From: Chlorobaculum limnaeum
GTDB lineage: Bacteria; Bacteroidota; Chlorobiia; Chlorobiales; Chlorobiaceae
Length of the DNA: 64,000 nucleotides
Direction of reading: 5' to 3'
Assembly (NCBI RefSeq): GCF_001747405.1
Contig: NZ_CP017305.1
Location: 1,072,001-1,136,000, forward strand
The position numbers were made by a program, and so were the translations under genes. Every line of letters begins with the position of its first letter. The stretch's first letter is position 1. This document shows, in pieces, positions 30,940-39,521 of the stretch. The notes under the pieces are model-generated. The model did no database searches and was not told the DNA's origin. It saw only the letters and a program-made list of their open reading frames with translations.

Positions 30940-31507
30940 GAATGGTTGTCAGGTGAATTTGGAGTTCCGGATGGAATGACTCCGGTGAAGCGGAATTGGT
31001 TCCCGGCCGGACGTTGAAGGATGTAAAGCAGGATCGAAAAGGCATTGATCTCATCTATAGTTTGCCGGAGCTTCTGGCGGCATGGCGAGCCGCAATGGTA
31101 AAATTCCGCCAAAACATCAACTTTTTACTGCGAACGAATATAGAAAAAATATGCTGATTCTATGTGACATAATTGAAAATCCATAAGAAAAGCCATTTTT
31201 CAGGCTGGACGCGAGTCGATTTGGAGCTTCAGGCAGGCGAACGGTGACGAGAGAGGCGTTGCCATTTTCTGCCTGCCCGCCAGAAATACGGAAGGCCGGG
31301 ACTTGATAAATACCGAGATTCTTCGTACATATAAGCCGTAAGCCACGCCGTCGAGCTTATGCATTACCCCTCCCGAGACGGATTGTCGAATGAGCTGAAC
31401 AGACCCGATGTAAGACGAGTGACGGAATCGATGGTATGTGCTTTGATCCTGTGGTTTCTACTGAGCTGGTGTGAAGCGTATTTTGAGCGATGCCGTGTGT
31501 GTTGCCG
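30940..31507. other. Long gap, no gene recognised
   Basis: GC-rich at the left (probable promoter and leader of the 5S gene), turning AT-rich to the right. A 60-codon open stretch at 31359-31541 lacks protein-like character and is not called. Confidence 0.45.
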
Positions 31508-31667
31508 GTTTAGACTGATCGGTATAAGTCAGCAGGATTAAATGATTGTTAATGAGGTTAACTTAATTATAAATAATAAGTTAGATGGTCTGTGATTATG
31601 ATTTATGCTTTGTCTTATACAGAAAGTAGCTTTCTGCCTTTTCTGGATTAGGCAGATCAGTCTAAAC
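31508..31667. other. Inverted-repeat-bounded structured region upstream of the TIR gene
   Basis: Perfect 13-bp arms GTTTAGACTGATC (31508-31520) and GATCAGTCTAAAC (31655-31667) enclose 134 bp. Inside are an AT hairpin (31560-31582, one bulged base) and a CAGAAAG-tag-CTTTCTG hairpin (31620-31636). It ends 55 bp before the TIR start. It could be a structured RNA, a regulatory operator, or a mobile-element relic; the sequence alone does not decide. Confidence 0.5.
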
Positions 31668-31722
31668 ATTGTTGGCCCACATGCAATTGAAATTGTGAAT
31701 TCATAAAGCGAAGGAGAAGAAT

Positions 31723-32505
31723 ATGTCTTGCAAGGTGTTTGTTAGCTACAGTTGGTCAAATAGTGCTGAACGCAGAGCATTGCAGGCAGAGATTGGCGAA
31801 TTAGAAGGCATATCGGTGCTTGTTGATAAGAATTACATAAAACCGGGCGACCAAATCCATGCGAGAGTTGCACAGATGATTGATGCTGCAGACTATGTCG
31901 TCGTACTCCTAACGACAGAAGGGCTAAGCTCCCCTGAGGTTCGAGACGAGCTGAGTAGGTGTCACGACCGTGGAAAAAGAATCATTCCTGTGGCTATGGA
32001 GGGCACTCCGCTTGAGGATTTACCGTGGTTTTTACGTGATGTGAGAGTGATCAAATACAACCATCGGAACTTTGATGCGGTAGTCGAAGAGTTGCTTGCC
32101 TTACTTCATTCTCTGGTGGACCCAAAAGAACAAATTGATCTGACCAGATTACCACCAGCTATCAAGTGTAAATTGGAAAAAGGTTGCAGGTTGATTGTCG
32201 TAGGTAATGAAAGTCGAGAATCAGGCTTAGAAGGTTTATTGCTCTTCGAACTCCACATGCGGCATTCGGATGCAATTTTCGTTATCGCTTCCGATCCAAA
32301 GTTTTCAGTTGAACTAGTTGCAGAATATTTGGCTAAGGATTTGCAGCCACACCTGCGTCACAGAGATTATGAATGGATGCTTATTAAGGAAAACAGACAG
32401 CTTCCAGGCTATCTCTCTTTAGAAGCAGCCAATCTAAGAAGTGGTGATGTAGTACTTTTATTAGGCAATCATCGTATGCCAGAATGGGCGCCTTTCTGCC
32501 GATAG
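31723..32505 (+). CDS. TIR-domain protein with C-terminal ubiquitin-like domain
   Basis: A 260-residue AT-rich gene with a clear AAGGAGAA ribosome-binding site. Residues 4-130 are a TIR domain: Val-Phe-Val-Ser-Tyr-Ser-Trp (5-11), Lys-Pro-Gly-Asp near 40, and Ser-Ser-Pro-Glu-Val-Arg-Asp-Glu-Leu (69-77) at the catalytic-Glu position (Glu72/Glu76), so NAD cleavage or cyclisation is plausible. After a linker, residues 182-249 read like a beta-grasp/ubiquitin fold: a first strand Ala-Ile-Phe-Val-Ile-Ala, a helix Glu-Leu-Val-Ala-Glu-Tyr-Leu-Ala, then Trp-Met-Leu-Ile, and the end Leu-Arg-Ser-Gly-Asp-Val-Val-Leu-Leu-Leu typical of 'GD-x-hydrophobic' ubiquitin-like endings. There is no C-terminal Gly-Gly. 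The fold call is by eye. It is 14 bp upstream of, and surely co-transcribed with, a radical SAM gene. Confidence 0.8.
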   Translation: MSCKVFVSYSWSNSAERRALQAEIGELEGISVLVDKNYIKPGDQIHARVAQMIDAADYVVVLLTTEGLSSPEVRDELSRCHDRGKRIIPVAMEGTPLEDLPWFLRDVRVIKYNHRNFDAVVEELLALLHSLVDPKEQIDLTRLPPAIKCKLEKGCRLIVVGNESRESGLEGLLLFELHMRHSDAIFVIASDPKFSVELVAEYLAKDLQPHLRHRDYEWMLIKENRQLPGYLSLEAANLRSGDVVLLLGNHRMPEWAPFCR

Positions 32506-32519
32506 CATGAGGTTGAATC

Positions 32520-33743
32520 ATGACCAAAGATTTGCCAGTGAAACCAGAATTGGCATTTCTGGTATTACAGCCTACTTCTAGTCAGCTCTATTGCATTCCA
32601 CAACATCTTGTCAAGGACAAGCGCATAGCGGAAGATAGAAAGAGTTCTTATCGGAAGGAAGAAATCTCATATGTCATTGATCTAACGAATGGACGAGAGT
32701 TCTATGTAACACAAGATTTACTTGAAATTCATGCAATTCCCGATGAGATGATTCGTGAATACCTTGTTGCTTTTTCCGTCAAGGGGTTGAGAAGGCCATA
32801 TCGCTTTGCTCCCCGCGAACCATTTGTTTTTCATGGGAATCTATTAAATCCTAAGACGGGAATGATAAACCTCGGAGGATATTGCAATAGTCACTGTAGG
32901 TTTTGTTATACAAGATGGTTGCAGGATTCTCCAGATATGAAGACGAACGAAGCCAAGGAAATTATGAATAGATTATCGAGAATTGAGAGCATAGATACTC
33001 TTGTCCTGACCGGAGGAGAAGCAACCATCCGCACCGACTTAGAATTATTGCTTGGACATGCTAAGCATCTCGGGTTCTCAGATATAGGGTTACAGACCAA
33101 TGGCAGAGCACTAAATTCAGATTATGTTCAGAAATTGTTGAAAGCGGGTCTCTCTACTGTTCTCATATCACTACATGGAACTTCCGAACATGTTCATGAT
33201 AAAATCACTGGAGTTCCTGGAAGCTATAAGGCTACCTTGAGAGCTATAAGTAATCTATTTTCTGCATCTGTCGGTGTAGTTGTTAATACAGTTATTTGCC
33301 GTTCTAATGCTCATGAACTGAATAACATGCCAAACGTCCTTGGCGATTTTGTGGAAAGAGGTGTTACATGGCGGCTATCATATCCGATACTTGAAGGGGA
33401 TGCCTACGTTAATCGGCAGGAGTTGCTCATACGCTTTTCCAAACTCAATCGATACTTAGTTGATACTCTACCTAAAGCTCGTAGGATTGGGATGAAGTTG
33501 CAGGCTGGGACTATGCCTCTTTGCATCTCTAAACGCTATGAGTTACATAATACGTATACTACTAACGAGCTGCTTTCTTTAATTGTAGTATCTCCTTTCT
33601 ATAATCATAATATTGTTCGCGGCGAAGTGTCGGTAAAGTTCAGAGCATGTTCTGCTTGCACTACTGAGTCTTTGTGTCGTGGCATTCAAATCGAGTACCT
33701 AAAGATGTTCCCAGATGCGCATAAAGAATTTCGTCCTATATAG
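32520..33743 (+). CDS. Radical SAM enzyme partnered with the TIR protein
   Basis: A 407-residue radical SAM protein. The cluster motif Cys-x3-Cys-x2-Cys is at Cys122, Cys126 and Cys129, followed by Tyr. The SAM-binding Thr-Gly-Gly-Glu-Ala-Thr is near residue 164, and Gln-Thr-Asn-Gly-Arg lies in the next strand. A long N-terminal region (1-115) precedes the barrel and has no match I recognise. Near the end, Cys377, Cys380 and Cys386 (Cys-x2-Cys-x5-Cys) suggest a SPASM/twitch-like auxiliary cluster, as in peptide-modifying and sactipeptide-type enzymes. No small precursor-peptide gene is seen beside it, so the substrate may be the TIR partner, its ubiquitin-like domain or a nucleotide. AT-rich throughout, with foreign-looking codon use. 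Confidence 0.85.
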   Translation: MTKDLPVKPELAFLVLQPTSSQLYCIPQHLVKDKRIAEDRKSSYRKEEISYVIDLTNGREFYVTQDLLEIHAIPDEMIREYLVAFSVKGLRRPYRFAPREPFVFHGNLLNPKTGMINLGGYCNSHCRFCYTRWLQDSPDMKTNEAKEIMNRLSRIESIDTLVLTGGEATIRTDLELLLGHAKHLGFSDIGLQTNGRALNSDYVQKLLKAGLSTVLISLHGTSEHVHDKITGVPGSYKATLRAISNLFSASVGVVVNTVICRSNAHELNNMPNVLGDFVERGVTWRLSYPILEGDAYVNRQELLIRFSKLNRYLVDTLPKARRIGMKLQAGTMPLCISKRYELHNTYTTNELLSLIVVSPFYNHNIVRGEVSVKFRACSACTTESLCRGIQIEYLKMFPDAHKEFRPI

Positions 33744-34050
33744 GACTCTCAATCATATGATTTACAGTGGTATCAAGTACCAATCGATATTAAGAGGAAT
33801 GACGTAAGAACTTGCCAACCAAACCTTGAACCGGACGCAAAAAGACGCGCCGGTTAAGGTTGCGTTAGGTTTTAATAACATGGACATTACCCAAATACTC
33901 TAAGCAGCGGAAAAAGGACGCCATGAATTCTGTGGGCAATGCCCATGGTAGCCTGTCAGTGAGCCGTCAGTATGAAGAGAATAAGAGAGATTAAGGGACG
34001 TTGTTCCGTTGCTGAAAATTATGCGTTCACCTCTCCAGCTCAAGGCGATT
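33744..34050. other. Gap holding the attC-like palindrome
   Basis: The only clear structure is the palindrome at 33814-33870. The rest (33871-34050) has no open frame of note; a short Met-Asp-Ile-Thr-Gln-Ile-Leu start followed at once by a stop suggests a decayed gene I cannot name. Confidence 0.4.
33814..33870 (+). other. Integron attC-like palindrome
   Basis: The arms AACCTTGAACCGG (33822-33834) and CCGGTTAAGGTT (33850-33861) pair with one extra G in the left arm, as in the L''/L' boxes of attC sites. The flanking boxes are CCAAC (33815-33819) and GTTAGGT (33864-33870), the latter fitting the R' core GTTRRRY. It is 70 bp past the radical SAM stop, where an attC would lie in a gene cassette. 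The left R'' box is imperfect, and no integrase is in the window. Confidence 0.4.
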
Positions 34051-34335
34051 TCACAGCAGCATCTCGTAGCCGTTGCTTTCTACCGCTTTTCGGAATGCGG
34101 GTGAAATGCCGTTTCAGTCGAGAATATCAACTCTGAAAGGCAATTCGGATTCCTGAAAAGCCTCTTTGATTTCGGCGAGCAGTTTCCAGTCGAGCGCGGA
34201 TTTGACCTTGATGGCGAGGTTGAGGTCTGACCGGGGTTTTGCCGTGCCGTGAATCCGTGAGCCGAACACGATGATTTCGGCGTCCGGCACGAAACGATCA
34301 AGGAAGTTCTTTTAAGGACAGCCCAGGTCAAAGAC
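34051..34335 (-). pseudogene. MNT-type nucleotidyltransferase relic
   Basis: The reverse strand encodes Val-Phe-Gly-Ser-Arg-Ile-His-Gly-Thr-Ala, Lys-Pro-Arg-Ser-Asp-Leu-Asn-Leu-Ala, the hallmark of minimal nucleotidyltransferases (MNT antitoxin type, where the Asp pair binds metal), and ends Phe-Arg-Lys-Ala-Val-Glu near 34080. It is broken by an in-frame TGA at 34114-34116 (where Trp is expected after Ile-Leu-Asp) and by a frameshift or stop at its N-terminus near 34310. One metal-binding Asp is also replaced by Asn. The usual HEPN partner gene is not visible. Confidence 0.75.
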
Positions 34336-37714: not shown

Positions 37715-37951
37715 TCATGAGGCGCTCTCATGCCCCCGTTCACGGATTTCTCGCTGAATGCCAATAAGCTCTTCAGTCGTGATGTTCAGATCGATTCCGG
37801 GAACATCCAGCGGTGAGCCGCTTCGACTCGCTGGCCTTAAGACAAAAAGCTGACCATCCTTACGGCGAATCATGACCTCACCTTCTTTCCGCGCCTTCTC
37901 CAGCACGGACGACAAGTGTTGCCGTGCTTCTGTATAAGTATATGTTTTCAT
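37715..37951 (-). CDS. Phd/YefM-type antitoxin
   Basis: A 78-residue antitoxin-like protein. The N-terminus, Thr-Tyr-Thr-Glu-Ala-Arg-Gln-His-Leu-Ser-Ser-Val-Leu-Glu, is the Phd/YefM dimerising DNA-binding domain, and the C-terminus is a charged, probably disordered toxin-binding tail. It overlaps the PIN toxin stop by one base (ATGA). The toxin lies upstream in the transcript, which is the reverse of the usual antitoxin-first order. Confidence 0.8.
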   Translation of the reverse strand: MKTYTYTEARQHLSSVLEKARKEGEVMIRRKDGQLFVLRPASRSGSPLDVPGIDLNITTEELIGIQREIRERGHESAS

Positions 37952-38343
37952 CAGTTAACCTCCAGAATATTGATACCCAAATGCCGGGCAGTTTGTTCCA
38001 GTCCTTGATCAAGTGTAAGCAATGGAGTGCGATACTTCAAAGCACAGGCCAGCATATAGGCATCATAGGCGTAAATTTTTTGCTGAGCAGCAATTTCCAC
38101 AGCATGTGACAGGCTGATTTCCACAAATCGTATCGGTATGCACTCATATGAATCTACCGCAAGCTGAGCTTGTTCATGAGTCATGCGATTTCTCTTGAGC
38201 ATCGCGCTCAATGCATTGCCGATTTCCCAATGCAGGGATAATGGGGCAATTAATGTTTCGCCATCAGTGAGCTTCAGAAGCTGTTGCTTATGCGACTCAT
38301 TGATGAGAACAGCTATAATCGCTGAAGTGTCTATGACTATCAT
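37951..38343 (-). CDS. PIN-domain toxin (VapC-like)
   Basis: A 130-residue PIN ribonuclease. The first acidic residue is in Ile-Asp-Thr-Ser-Ala near position 4, a Glu follows in Trp-Glu-Ile-Gly-Asn-Ala near 46, Asp in Ala-Tyr-Asp-Ala-Tyr near 96, and Asp in Leu-Thr-Leu-Asp near 114, giving the complete PIN Mg2+ site. It should cleave tRNA or rRNA. ATG 38343 is chosen because Met-Ile-Val-Ile-Asp-Thr is the standard opening. Confidence 0.87.
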   Translation of the reverse strand: MIVIDTSAIIAVLINESHKQQLLKLTDGETLIAPLSLHWEIGNALSAMLKRNRMTHEQAQLAVDSYECIPIRFVEISLSHAVEIAAQQKIYAYDAYMLACALKYRTPLLTLDQGLEQTARHLGINILEVN

Positions 38344-38388
38344 AATTTTCCTGATATTGTACAGTTGCATATATAATACTATTTTCTT

Positions 38389-38586
38389 TCACTTGCCACA
38401 ACTGAAAACGTTTATCTTGGCAATTTCAAATCCACCTTGTATTTCTTTTTTGATCTCATCCCAAGTGACGCCTTTCACTTTTCCAGTAATGAGATCGACA
38501 TATCGCCTGTTAGCCAACTCAGCCCAAGCCTCATCCATGTCCTGAACAATTATATTTTCCAATATATCTTTAGGGGTTTCTGACAT
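38389..38586 (-). CDS. Small antitoxin-like protein
   Basis: A 65-residue acidic protein ending with Glu-Ala-Trp-Ala-Glu-Leu-Ala-Asn-Arg-Arg...Thr-Gly-Lys-Val-Lys-Gly-Val-Thr-Trp-Asp-Glu, which resembles the C-terminal half of addiction-module (TIGR02574-like) antitoxins. It is 45 bp upstream of the PIN gene. It may be an extra antitoxin or a fragment; no RelE toxin follows it. Confidence 0.55.
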   Translation of the reverse strand: MSETPKDILENIIVQDMDEAWAELANRRYVDLITGKVKGVTWDEIKKEIQGGFEIAKINVFSCGK

Positions 38587-38633
38587 TTTTTCTCCGTTTG
38601 CGATGAAGTATTCGGTGAAATTACCTGTAAAAA

Positions 38634-38867
38634 TCAATGAATATGCTTTTCTCGAATTCTGCCAAAGACCTCTTCTCCGGAAATCCATTGAGCCTTGCCT
38701 TCCTCAACTTGCAATACCCGGCGTTCCGCCTCATCCGCCCAAAGACGATCAATTTCTGGATCGATAGTCTGGTTGAGGCTTTCCAGAAGTTTCTCGATAA
38801 GGCTCAATCGAAAATTTGCCGTTAAAGAGAGGGCTTCTTCTATGATTCTGTCATGTGTTGCTGGCAT
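38634..38867 (-). CDS. Addiction-module antitoxin component (TIGR02574-like)
   Basis: A 77-residue protein of the putative addiction-module family: a helical N-terminus with Leu-Ser-Leu-Ile-Glu-Lys-Leu-Leu-Glu-Ser-Leu, then Asp-Glu-Ala-Glu-Arg-Arg-Val...Gly-Lys-Ala-Gln-Trp-Ile-Ser-Gly-Glu-Glu-Val. Such antitoxins usually precede a RelE/ParE toxin, but none is adjacent here; the next genes are another small antitoxin-like protein and the PIN/Phd pair. Confidence 0.7.
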   Translation of the reverse strand: MPATHDRIIEEALSLTANFRLSLIEKLLESLNQTIDPEIDRLWADEAERRVLQVEEGKAQWISGEEVFGRIREKHIH

Positions 38868-38927: not shown

Positions 38928-39521
38928 TTAAATAATTCCTTTTTGCTTTAGTGATTTTATCCATCTTTTTTCGTGTTGATCGATTGATCCTATTCTTGCT
39001 GCCGGATGCGGTACATGAATGCATTCTATGCCTGATTTTATTAAACCATAGTGCGCCGCATTGCCGAGTGCCAGAATGATTTTAGGCTTCGCCAATTGCA
39101 GTTCTTTTGCAACGAACTTGCTTGCAACTTGTTTGATGAGCCTTAAAGGGATATGTGTGGATATTCCGTCTGGCTTAATGAATGGAAACACGTTAGTCGC
39201 ATATACATCTTTGATGCCGACTGAGAAGACACGCTTCAGGAGTTCCTCTAACCTTAAATTGGTTTTAAGGCTTATCGTACGACCATATTCTTGAACTGAT
39301 TGATCTACTTTATGCTCTAGGCCGTCATGGCTAGACCAATCTTGTAGAACAATGGCTATTCCGCCCAATTGATGGGCGCCTTTTGTATAAGGGCTAACCC
39401 ATTCTTTAAAATTGTACCCATAGTCCTCAGGTTGCCCATACCCAGCTAGCGAGTAGTTAACCCGTTCATCAGCGAGGGCCAAGTATTCTGAAGACATTTG
39501 GCCTTTTTCTGGTATCTCCAT
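38928..39521 (-). CDS. Uracil-DNA-glycosylase-family protein
   Basis: A 197-residue AT-rich gene. The second half carries UDG-superfamily traits: Thr-Asn-Val-Phe-Pro-Phe near residue 110, Lys-Ile-Ile-Leu-Ala-Leu-Gly-Asn-Ala near 147, and the catalytic/DNA-intercalating loop His-Val-Pro-His-Pro-Ala-Ala-Arg near 169. No iron-sulfur cysteines are present, so it is not a family 4 or 5 enzyme. It may remove uracil, or it may be a catalytically divergent member. Its base composition differs from core genes, suggesting transfer. Confidence 0.7.
   Translation of the reverse strand: MEIPEKGQMSSEYLALADERVNYSLAGYGQPEDYGYNFKEWVSPYTKGAHQLGGIAIVLQDWSSHDGLEHKVDQSVQEYGRTISLKTNLRLEELLKRVFSVGIKDVYATNVFPFIKPDGISTHIPLRLIKQVASKFVAKELQLAKPKIILALGNAAHYGLIKSGIECIHVPHPAARIGSIDQHEKRWIKSLKQKGII

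What the first reader, a model, noticed from the sequence alone, without database searches (positions are those of the whole stretch)
31723..33743. TIR plus ubiquitin-like domain protein paired with a radical SAM enzyme
Two AT-rich genes 14 bp apart in a GC-rich genome. The first has a TIR domain with a plausible catalytic Glu (residue 72 or 76) and a C-terminal region (182-249) that I read as beta-grasp/ubiquitin-like, without a terminal Gly-Gly. The second is a radical SAM protein with Cys122/126/129, an unassigned 115-residue N-terminus and a C-terminal Cys377/380/386 cluster. TIR proteins are known bacterial immune NADase or cyclase effectors, and a few radical SAM proteins (viperin-like) are antiviral. 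A TIR/radical SAM pair with a ubiquitin-like domain is not a system I know. A modifying enzyme that activates or restrains the TIR partner, or makes a signal for it, is one model.
Basis: partly seen in the sequence, partly recalled or inferred. Interest (0 to 1): 0.88.

Follow-up and report, generated by a model that had tools for sequence, protein, structure and literature searches.

The report
TIR–radical SAM pair in integron cassette
In a green sulfur bacterium, a TIR-domain gene and a radical SAM enzyme gene travel together as one integron gene cassette parked at an integrase-less landing site of a type that often holds antiviral defence genes, so the pair is probably a small, undescribed immune system.

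Summary
The two genes are real: a 260-aa TIR_2 protein (31723-32505) and a 407-aa radical SAM enzyme (32520-33743), AT-rich, 14 bp apart. Tools changed the picture in three ways. (1) The pair is a two-gene integron cassette. On its left is an attI site (31496-31673), the same sequence that follows integron integrases in related genomes, conserved up to the G^TT crossover. On its right is an attC (33813-33870) with the extrahelical base, the only strict attC match in the window. The genome has no full integron integrase. (2) Related attI sites carry other cargo, at least 15 of 54 recognisably defence-type (CBASS cyclase, OLD/Gabija-like, PifA, TIRs, Mrr, Eco29kI). At this same chromosomal position other species carry different cargo. 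(3) I found no second copy of the pair (phylum sample, motif-limited scan of 85,000 species genomes, plasmids, phages, viral contigs). The enzyme core resembles peptide-modifying radical SAM enzymes (SkfB, HxsC); viperin cut-offs are not met. The cassette has no room for a separate precursor peptide. The TIR glutamate is E76; the ubiquitin-like reading is neither confirmed nor excluded. Best model: a compact TIR effector controlled by its radical SAM partner. Cassette anatomy is well supported; function is inferred.

The parts
31320..31495 (+). Repeat upstream of attI, shared by the dispersed attI copies of this genus but not seen next to intI
31496..31673 (+). attI recombination site without an integrase; crossover G^TT with G at 31671
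   Evidence: Same 178-bp stretch follows the intI ORF in related loci, its end 152-158 bp after the ORF end in five of them; conservation stops at GTT
31672..33864 (+). Two-gene integron cassette, about 2.2 kb, from the TT of the attI junction to the G of the attC R' box
31723..32505 (+). TIR-domain protein, 260 aa; E76 in the catalytic-Glu position; C-terminal region of unknown fold (residues 135-260) ending ...RMPEWAPFCR
32520..33743 (+). Radical SAM enzyme, 407 aa; CX3CX2C at 122/126/129; auxiliary-cluster-type Cys 335/377/380/386; orphan N-terminus 1-115
33813..33870 (+). attC: R'' ...CCAAC, L'' CCTTGAACCGG with extrahelical G, L' CCGGTTAAGG, R' GTTAGGT
   Evidence: Only strict hit in the window on both strands; bottom strand folds as a hairpin, z -3.1
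34050..34309 (-). Conserved right flank: broken MNT nucleotidyltransferase gene (in-frame TGA, upstream part lost); intact MNT gene at sister loci

Best explanation
The pair is one integron gene cassette captured at a solitary attI in a green sulfur bacterium. Shown: attI on the left, attC on the right, no attC between the genes, other cargo at sister attI sites. Inferred: it is a compact two-component immune module. The TIR protein is the effector (NAD+ cleavage or an NAD-derived signal through E76). Its C-terminal region is the sensing or regulatory part. The radical SAM enzyme works on its partner, most likely by modifying a residue of the TIR protein, perhaps in the C-terminal tail ...RMPEWAPFCR, to license or restrain it. 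The reasoning for the last step: the enzyme core is closest to peptide maturases, it has auxiliary-cluster-type cysteines, and the cassette leaves no room for a precursor peptide, so the TIR protein is the only other encoded polypeptide. Expression would come from a promoter near attI.
For: Cassette: the left repeat sits directly after integron integrases (TIGR02249 over cut-off in 15 of 86 family genomes) and ends at G^TT. The attC is the only strict match in 128 kb of strand, 0 in 20 shuffles, 3 in 1.2 Mb of control strand, and folds well. Sister loci show attI-cargo-attC, e.g. L124, L132, L135. Orthologous positions in L138, L139, L140, L174 hold the attI with different cargo; L141 lacks it. 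Defence context: CD-NTase 477 bits, OLD, PifA, PDC-S06, TIRs, Mrr, Eco29kI, HNH, AbiU2 next to attI. TIR with E76. Enzyme: top PDB sequence hit SkfB E = 1.2e-12, top Foldseek hit SkfB 6efn, HxsC-like C-terminus. No other ORF above 64 aa in the cassette on either strand.
Against: No second copy of the pair was found, so co-conservation is untested. The substrate claim rests on exclusion. [quoted passage not shown] attC R'' is imperfect (TGCCAAC against RYYYAAC). No promoter-like match was found in 31250-31720. Integron cassettes carry many functions besides defence.
Confidence: 0.5

Rival explanations
1. The radical SAM enzyme acts on a nucleotide, viperin-style, and makes an antiviral nucleotide or a signal that the TIR protein senses.
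For: pVip profiles match 121-266 at up to 62 bits; Foldseek aligns viperins with target TM about 0.6-0.7.
Against: NCBIfam viperin model scores 53.9 against a cut-off of 180. The pVip match covers only the shared radical SAM core. The extra C-terminal cysteines are not a viperin feature (own knowledge). Other radical SAM barrels match similarly.
Confidence: 0.15
2. The cassette is a stabilising toxin-antitoxin-like or other non-immune accessory module, and the defence-rich setting is incidental.
For: Cassettes at sister attI sites also include an aldo-keto reductase, TerB proteins, a GNAT and unknown genes; toxin-antitoxin type genes lie near some sites.
Against: TIR proteins recur as cargo here (L122, L155, L184, L190), and at least 15 of 54 sites have defence-type cargo.
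Confidence: 0.25
3. The two genes are linked only by being carried together and do not work together.
For: No second instance of the pair was found.
Against: 14 bp apart, same strand, a ribosome-binding-site-like GAGG before the second start, and no attC between them, so they are captured as one unit.
Confidence: 0.1

Closest known systems
Antiphage gene cassettes of sedentary and mobile integrons (Darracq et al. 2025 and a parallel study, as reviewed in PMC12409362)
   Same: Small defence systems of one or two genes carried as attC-bounded cassettes
   Different: Those described are in integrons with an integrase; here single cassettes sit at dispersed attI copies in a genome without intI, and TIR plus radical SAM is not among the systems I know
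Integrons with intI transcribed toward attI (Treponema; intI clade includes Chlorobium phaeobacteroides, PMC3607928)
   Same: Same layout in the family's intI-bearing loci: intI, attI, cassettes all in one direction
   Different: The window's copy has no intI and a different upstream 176 bp
FxSxx/VMAP and FtsH-ternary conflict systems (PMC7159879)
   Same: Radical SAM enzyme in systems that also have TIR-bearing or ubiquitin-like components; predicted peptide modification
   Different: Those have vWA/MoxR-type or AP-ATPase components, a metallopeptidase and a small peptide gene; this cassette has two genes only
SkfB / HxsC-type radical SAM maturases
   Same: Best sequence and fold matches; C-terminal auxiliary-cluster-type cysteines
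   Different: No precursor peptide or HxsB/HxsA partners; 23-30% identity; orphan 115-aa N-terminus
Thoeris, bSEFIR and other TIR defence proteins
   Same: TIR domain with catalytic-type Glu; bSEFIR profile E = 8.6e-12
   Different: No ThsA, and the part after the TIR matches none of them

Membership tests
Integron gene cassette | 5' junction at G^TT of an attI (or attC) | tested here: met
   Left repeat equals the sequence after intI and ends at GTT, 31671-31673
Integron gene cassette | 3' attC with R'/L'/L''/R'' and extrahelical base | tested here: met
   33813-33870, only strict hit in the window; R'' imperfect
Integron gene cassette | Excised and inserted by IntI | not testable with these tools
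   Needs an experiment; cargo differs at orthologous sites, which fits
Complete integron | Integron integrase gene in the element or genome | tested here: not met
   No match over the TIGR02249 cut-off in G000
TIR NADase/cyclase | TIR domain with catalytic Glu | tested here: met
   TIR_2 above cut-off; E76 aligns with Glu in five of the six other TIR rows compared, two of them the same gene
TIR NADase/cyclase | NAD+ cleavage | not testable with these tools
   Needs an assay
Ubiquitin-like beta-grasp domain in the TIR protein | Beta-grasp fold of residues 182-249 | tested here: inconclusive
   No meaningful Pfam or PDB hit; model pLDDT below 50
Prokaryotic viperin (pVip) | Score above the family cut-off | tested here: not met
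   NCBIfam 53.9 of 180 bits
His-Xaa-Ser maturase HxsC | Score above the family cut-off | tested here: not met
   76.1 of 267.9 bits
Thoeris | ThsB TIR above cut-off plus ThsA | tested here: not met
   ThsB_TIR 19.6 of 21.2 bits; only two genes in the cassette
FxSxx / VMAP system | Peptide gene, metallopeptidase, vWA or AP-ATPase gene nearby | tested here: not met
   Neighbours are carboxylase-type subunits, an AAA_28 protein and a cobyrinate-synthase-like protein; AAA_28 by Pfam, the others by reading the ORFs only

The most novel reading that the evidence does not exclude
A new two-gene immune module in which a radical SAM enzyme post-translationally modifies its TIR effector partner, as a RiPP maturase modifies a peptide, spread as an integron cassette between solitary attI docking sites that serve this bacterial family as scattered slots for single defence cassettes.
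Probability: 0.22. Interest if true: 0.85.

Novelty: new variant of a known kind. Interest (0 to 1): 0.64.

Why it matters
If right, it adds a TIR effector controlled by radical chemistry to bacterial immunity, a control mechanism I know of for no TIR protein. It also shows that green sulfur bacteria keep single cassettes, many of them defence genes, at repeated attI sites spread over the chromosome. That gives a short, sequence-defined list of places in which to look for further small defence systems: read what follows GTT at each attI.

Tried and rejected
Close relatives of either protein: none in viral contigs; weak TIR-only or radical-SAM-only hits in plasmids and phages. The genome-contig scan used an alignment (A3) that I built from P0002 plus hand-written motif variants, to steer the patterns to LTGGEAT[IL]R and CNxxCxFCYT; relatives without either motif would be missed. 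None of its 38 loci has a TIR match nearby. Left repeat as a known RNA family: rejected, the only Rfam hit is a sub-threshold hammerhead elsewhere. Left repeat as a transposon end: set aside once it was found next to intI. Left repeat as an attC: set aside for the 178-bp form, because it follows intI at a nearly fixed distance; some shorter copies inside arrays may be attC. YukD ubiquitin-like family as a comparison set: too few members in the phylum to use. P0001 structure: unusable, so no fold search was run on it.

Full report
Observation. Both genes are present as described: a 260-aa protein at 31723-32505 and a 407-aa protein at 32520-33743, same strand, 14 bp between them. Their kilobases have GC 0.42-0.45, against about 0.60-0.65 around them. 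The first has a TIR_2 domain (E = 7.2e-18) and matches the bSEFIR profile (E = 8.6e-12). The Glu shared with most other TIRs aligned is E76, in the S-x5-E position; E72 varies. The second is a radical SAM protein (E = 5.4e-22). Besides Cys122/126/129, the cysteines 377, 380 and 386 are invariant and 335 nearly so among 15 homologues, which fits an auxiliary iron-sulfur cluster. The genome encodes the FMO bacteriochlorophyll a protein (724.7 bits), so the host is a green sulfur bacterium or close kin; it is one contig of 2.80 Mb.

Relatives. No close relative of either protein was found. In about 300 genomes of the phylum the TIR protein has only TIR-domain matches, best E = 1e-8 outside the genome itself. 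The enzyme's best match is an HxsC-like protein at 29% identity in a genome of the same genus (L026). Plasmids, phages and viral contigs gave partial matches only. The single scan of 85,000 species genomes was steered with an alignment that I built from P0002 and hand-written motif variants; it returned 38 radical SAM loci at about 23-40% identity. None had a TIR match beside it, and none shared the enzyme's N-terminal 115 residues or the TIR protein's C-terminal part. The pair is therefore a singleton as far as searched. That is a limit of the evidence, not proof of absence.

The cassette. A BLAST of the region against the genus showed that the DNA on both sides of the pair is repeated elsewhere. 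The left repeat occurs in 54 of 86 genomes of the family. Integron integrases over the TIGR02249 cut-off occur in 15 of these 86, and the left repeat lies directly after them, in the same direction: in five loci its end is 152-158 bp from the end of the intI reading frame. Across dozens of loci the conserved sequence reads ...GGCAGATCAGTCTAAACATTGTT and stops there, followed often by AGGC or GGGC and then by unrelated cargo. That is the form of an attI site: conserved up to the G^TT crossover. The layout with intI reading toward attI is known from Treponema, whose intI clade includes Chlorobium phaeobacteroides (PMC3607928).

On the right, a strict attC search (R' GTTRRRY, L' and L'' complementary except for one extra base, R'' AAC) gives one hit in the whole window on both strands. 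It lies at 33813-33870, in the cassette direction, about 70 bp after the enzyme's stop. Twenty shuffles gave none; 1.2 Mb of control strand gave three, so a chance hit in this particular place is unlikely, about one in a thousand (the last figure is my estimate). Its bottom strand folds as a hairpin, z = -3.1. R'' is imperfect. There is no attC between the genes, so the pair is one two-gene cassette of about 2.2 kb, 31672-33864. The genome holds no integrase over the cut-off.

Sister sites. The same attI carries other cargo elsewhere, with attC-like sites after the cargo in several (L124, L132, L134, L135, L128, L130, L122). At the orthologous chromosomal position L138, L139, L140 and L174 have the attI with different genes, and L141 lacks the element. 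Of 54 attI sites with an ORF downstream, at least 15 have recognisable defence-type cargo as first or second ORF, this pair included: TIR proteins (L122, L155, L184, L190), a CBASS-type cyclase (L186), OLD/Gabija-like ATPases (L136, L138), PifA (L165), PDC-S06 (L139), PDC-S31 (L193), Mrr (L185), an Eco29kI restriction-modification pair (L156), an HNH protein (L179) and AbiU2 (L130). I had no formal background rate for this count, not every cargo was scanned against every library, and some of the shorter att matches inside arrays may be attC rather than attI. Antiphage cassettes are known from Vibrio and mobile integrons (PMC12409362).

Mechanism. Shown: the anatomy above. Established by family: TIR domains of this kind can cleave NAD+; radical SAM enzymes use a 5'-deoxyadenosyl radical. 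Inferred: the TIR protein is the effector and the enzyme modifies or controls it. The enzyme's closest solved relative by sequence and by fold is the peptide maturase SkfB, with a confident model for the core only. Within the cassette no reading frame other than the two genes exceeds 64 codons, and only about 120 bp remain between the enzyme's stop and the crossover, so a separate precursor peptide is unlikely. Viperin membership fails the family cut-off, although the shared barrel aligns. The ubiquitin-like reading of residues 182-249 is unresolved.

Novelty. The parts are known kinds; a stand-alone TIR plus radical SAM cassette is new to me, and the closest described association is the FxSxx/VMAP and FtsH-ternary systems (PMC7159879). 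I rate it a new variant of a known kind. My confidence is about 0.93 for the cassette, about 0.6 for a defence role, and about 0.3 for modification of the TIR partner.

Noticed in passing
G000:C1 586589-588433, 702290-706932, 1722644, 1954441, 2172744-2172940 (L122-L126): Further solitary attI copies (some partial) in the same genome, several with a single cassette; three sites, the window's included, have the MNT gene on the right. How attI copies without intI spread is not explained.
   Followed up: partly
L123, L127, L128, L130, L138, L139, L140: A MNT nucleotidyltransferase gene (apparently with an upstream HEPN gene at some loci, by reading only) recurs on the opposite strand just right of the cargo, as if part of the docking unit.
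   Followed up: partly
L132:1149-3024 (-): Another attI cassette with a radical SAM gene (468 aa), here with a 4-fold beta-flower protein rich in K-x-M repeats and a canonical-looking attC-like site.
   Followed up: partly
L133:2811-3596 (-): Penicillin-binding/class D beta-lactamase-like gene as cargo next to a partial attI repeat.
   Followed up: no
window 37951-38688 (-): PIN-domain toxin with an addiction-module antitoxin, in an AT-rich stretch near the pair.
   Followed up: no
window 38928-39521 (-): Protein with a weak uracil-DNA glycosylase match, AT-rich.
   Followed up: no
L058:4010-12943: Six related radical SAM genes in one archaeal contig.
   Followed up: no
window 33721-33758 (-): Hammerhead-like match below the Rfam gathering score (17.1 of 34 bits, E = 2.6), probably chance.
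   Followed up: no
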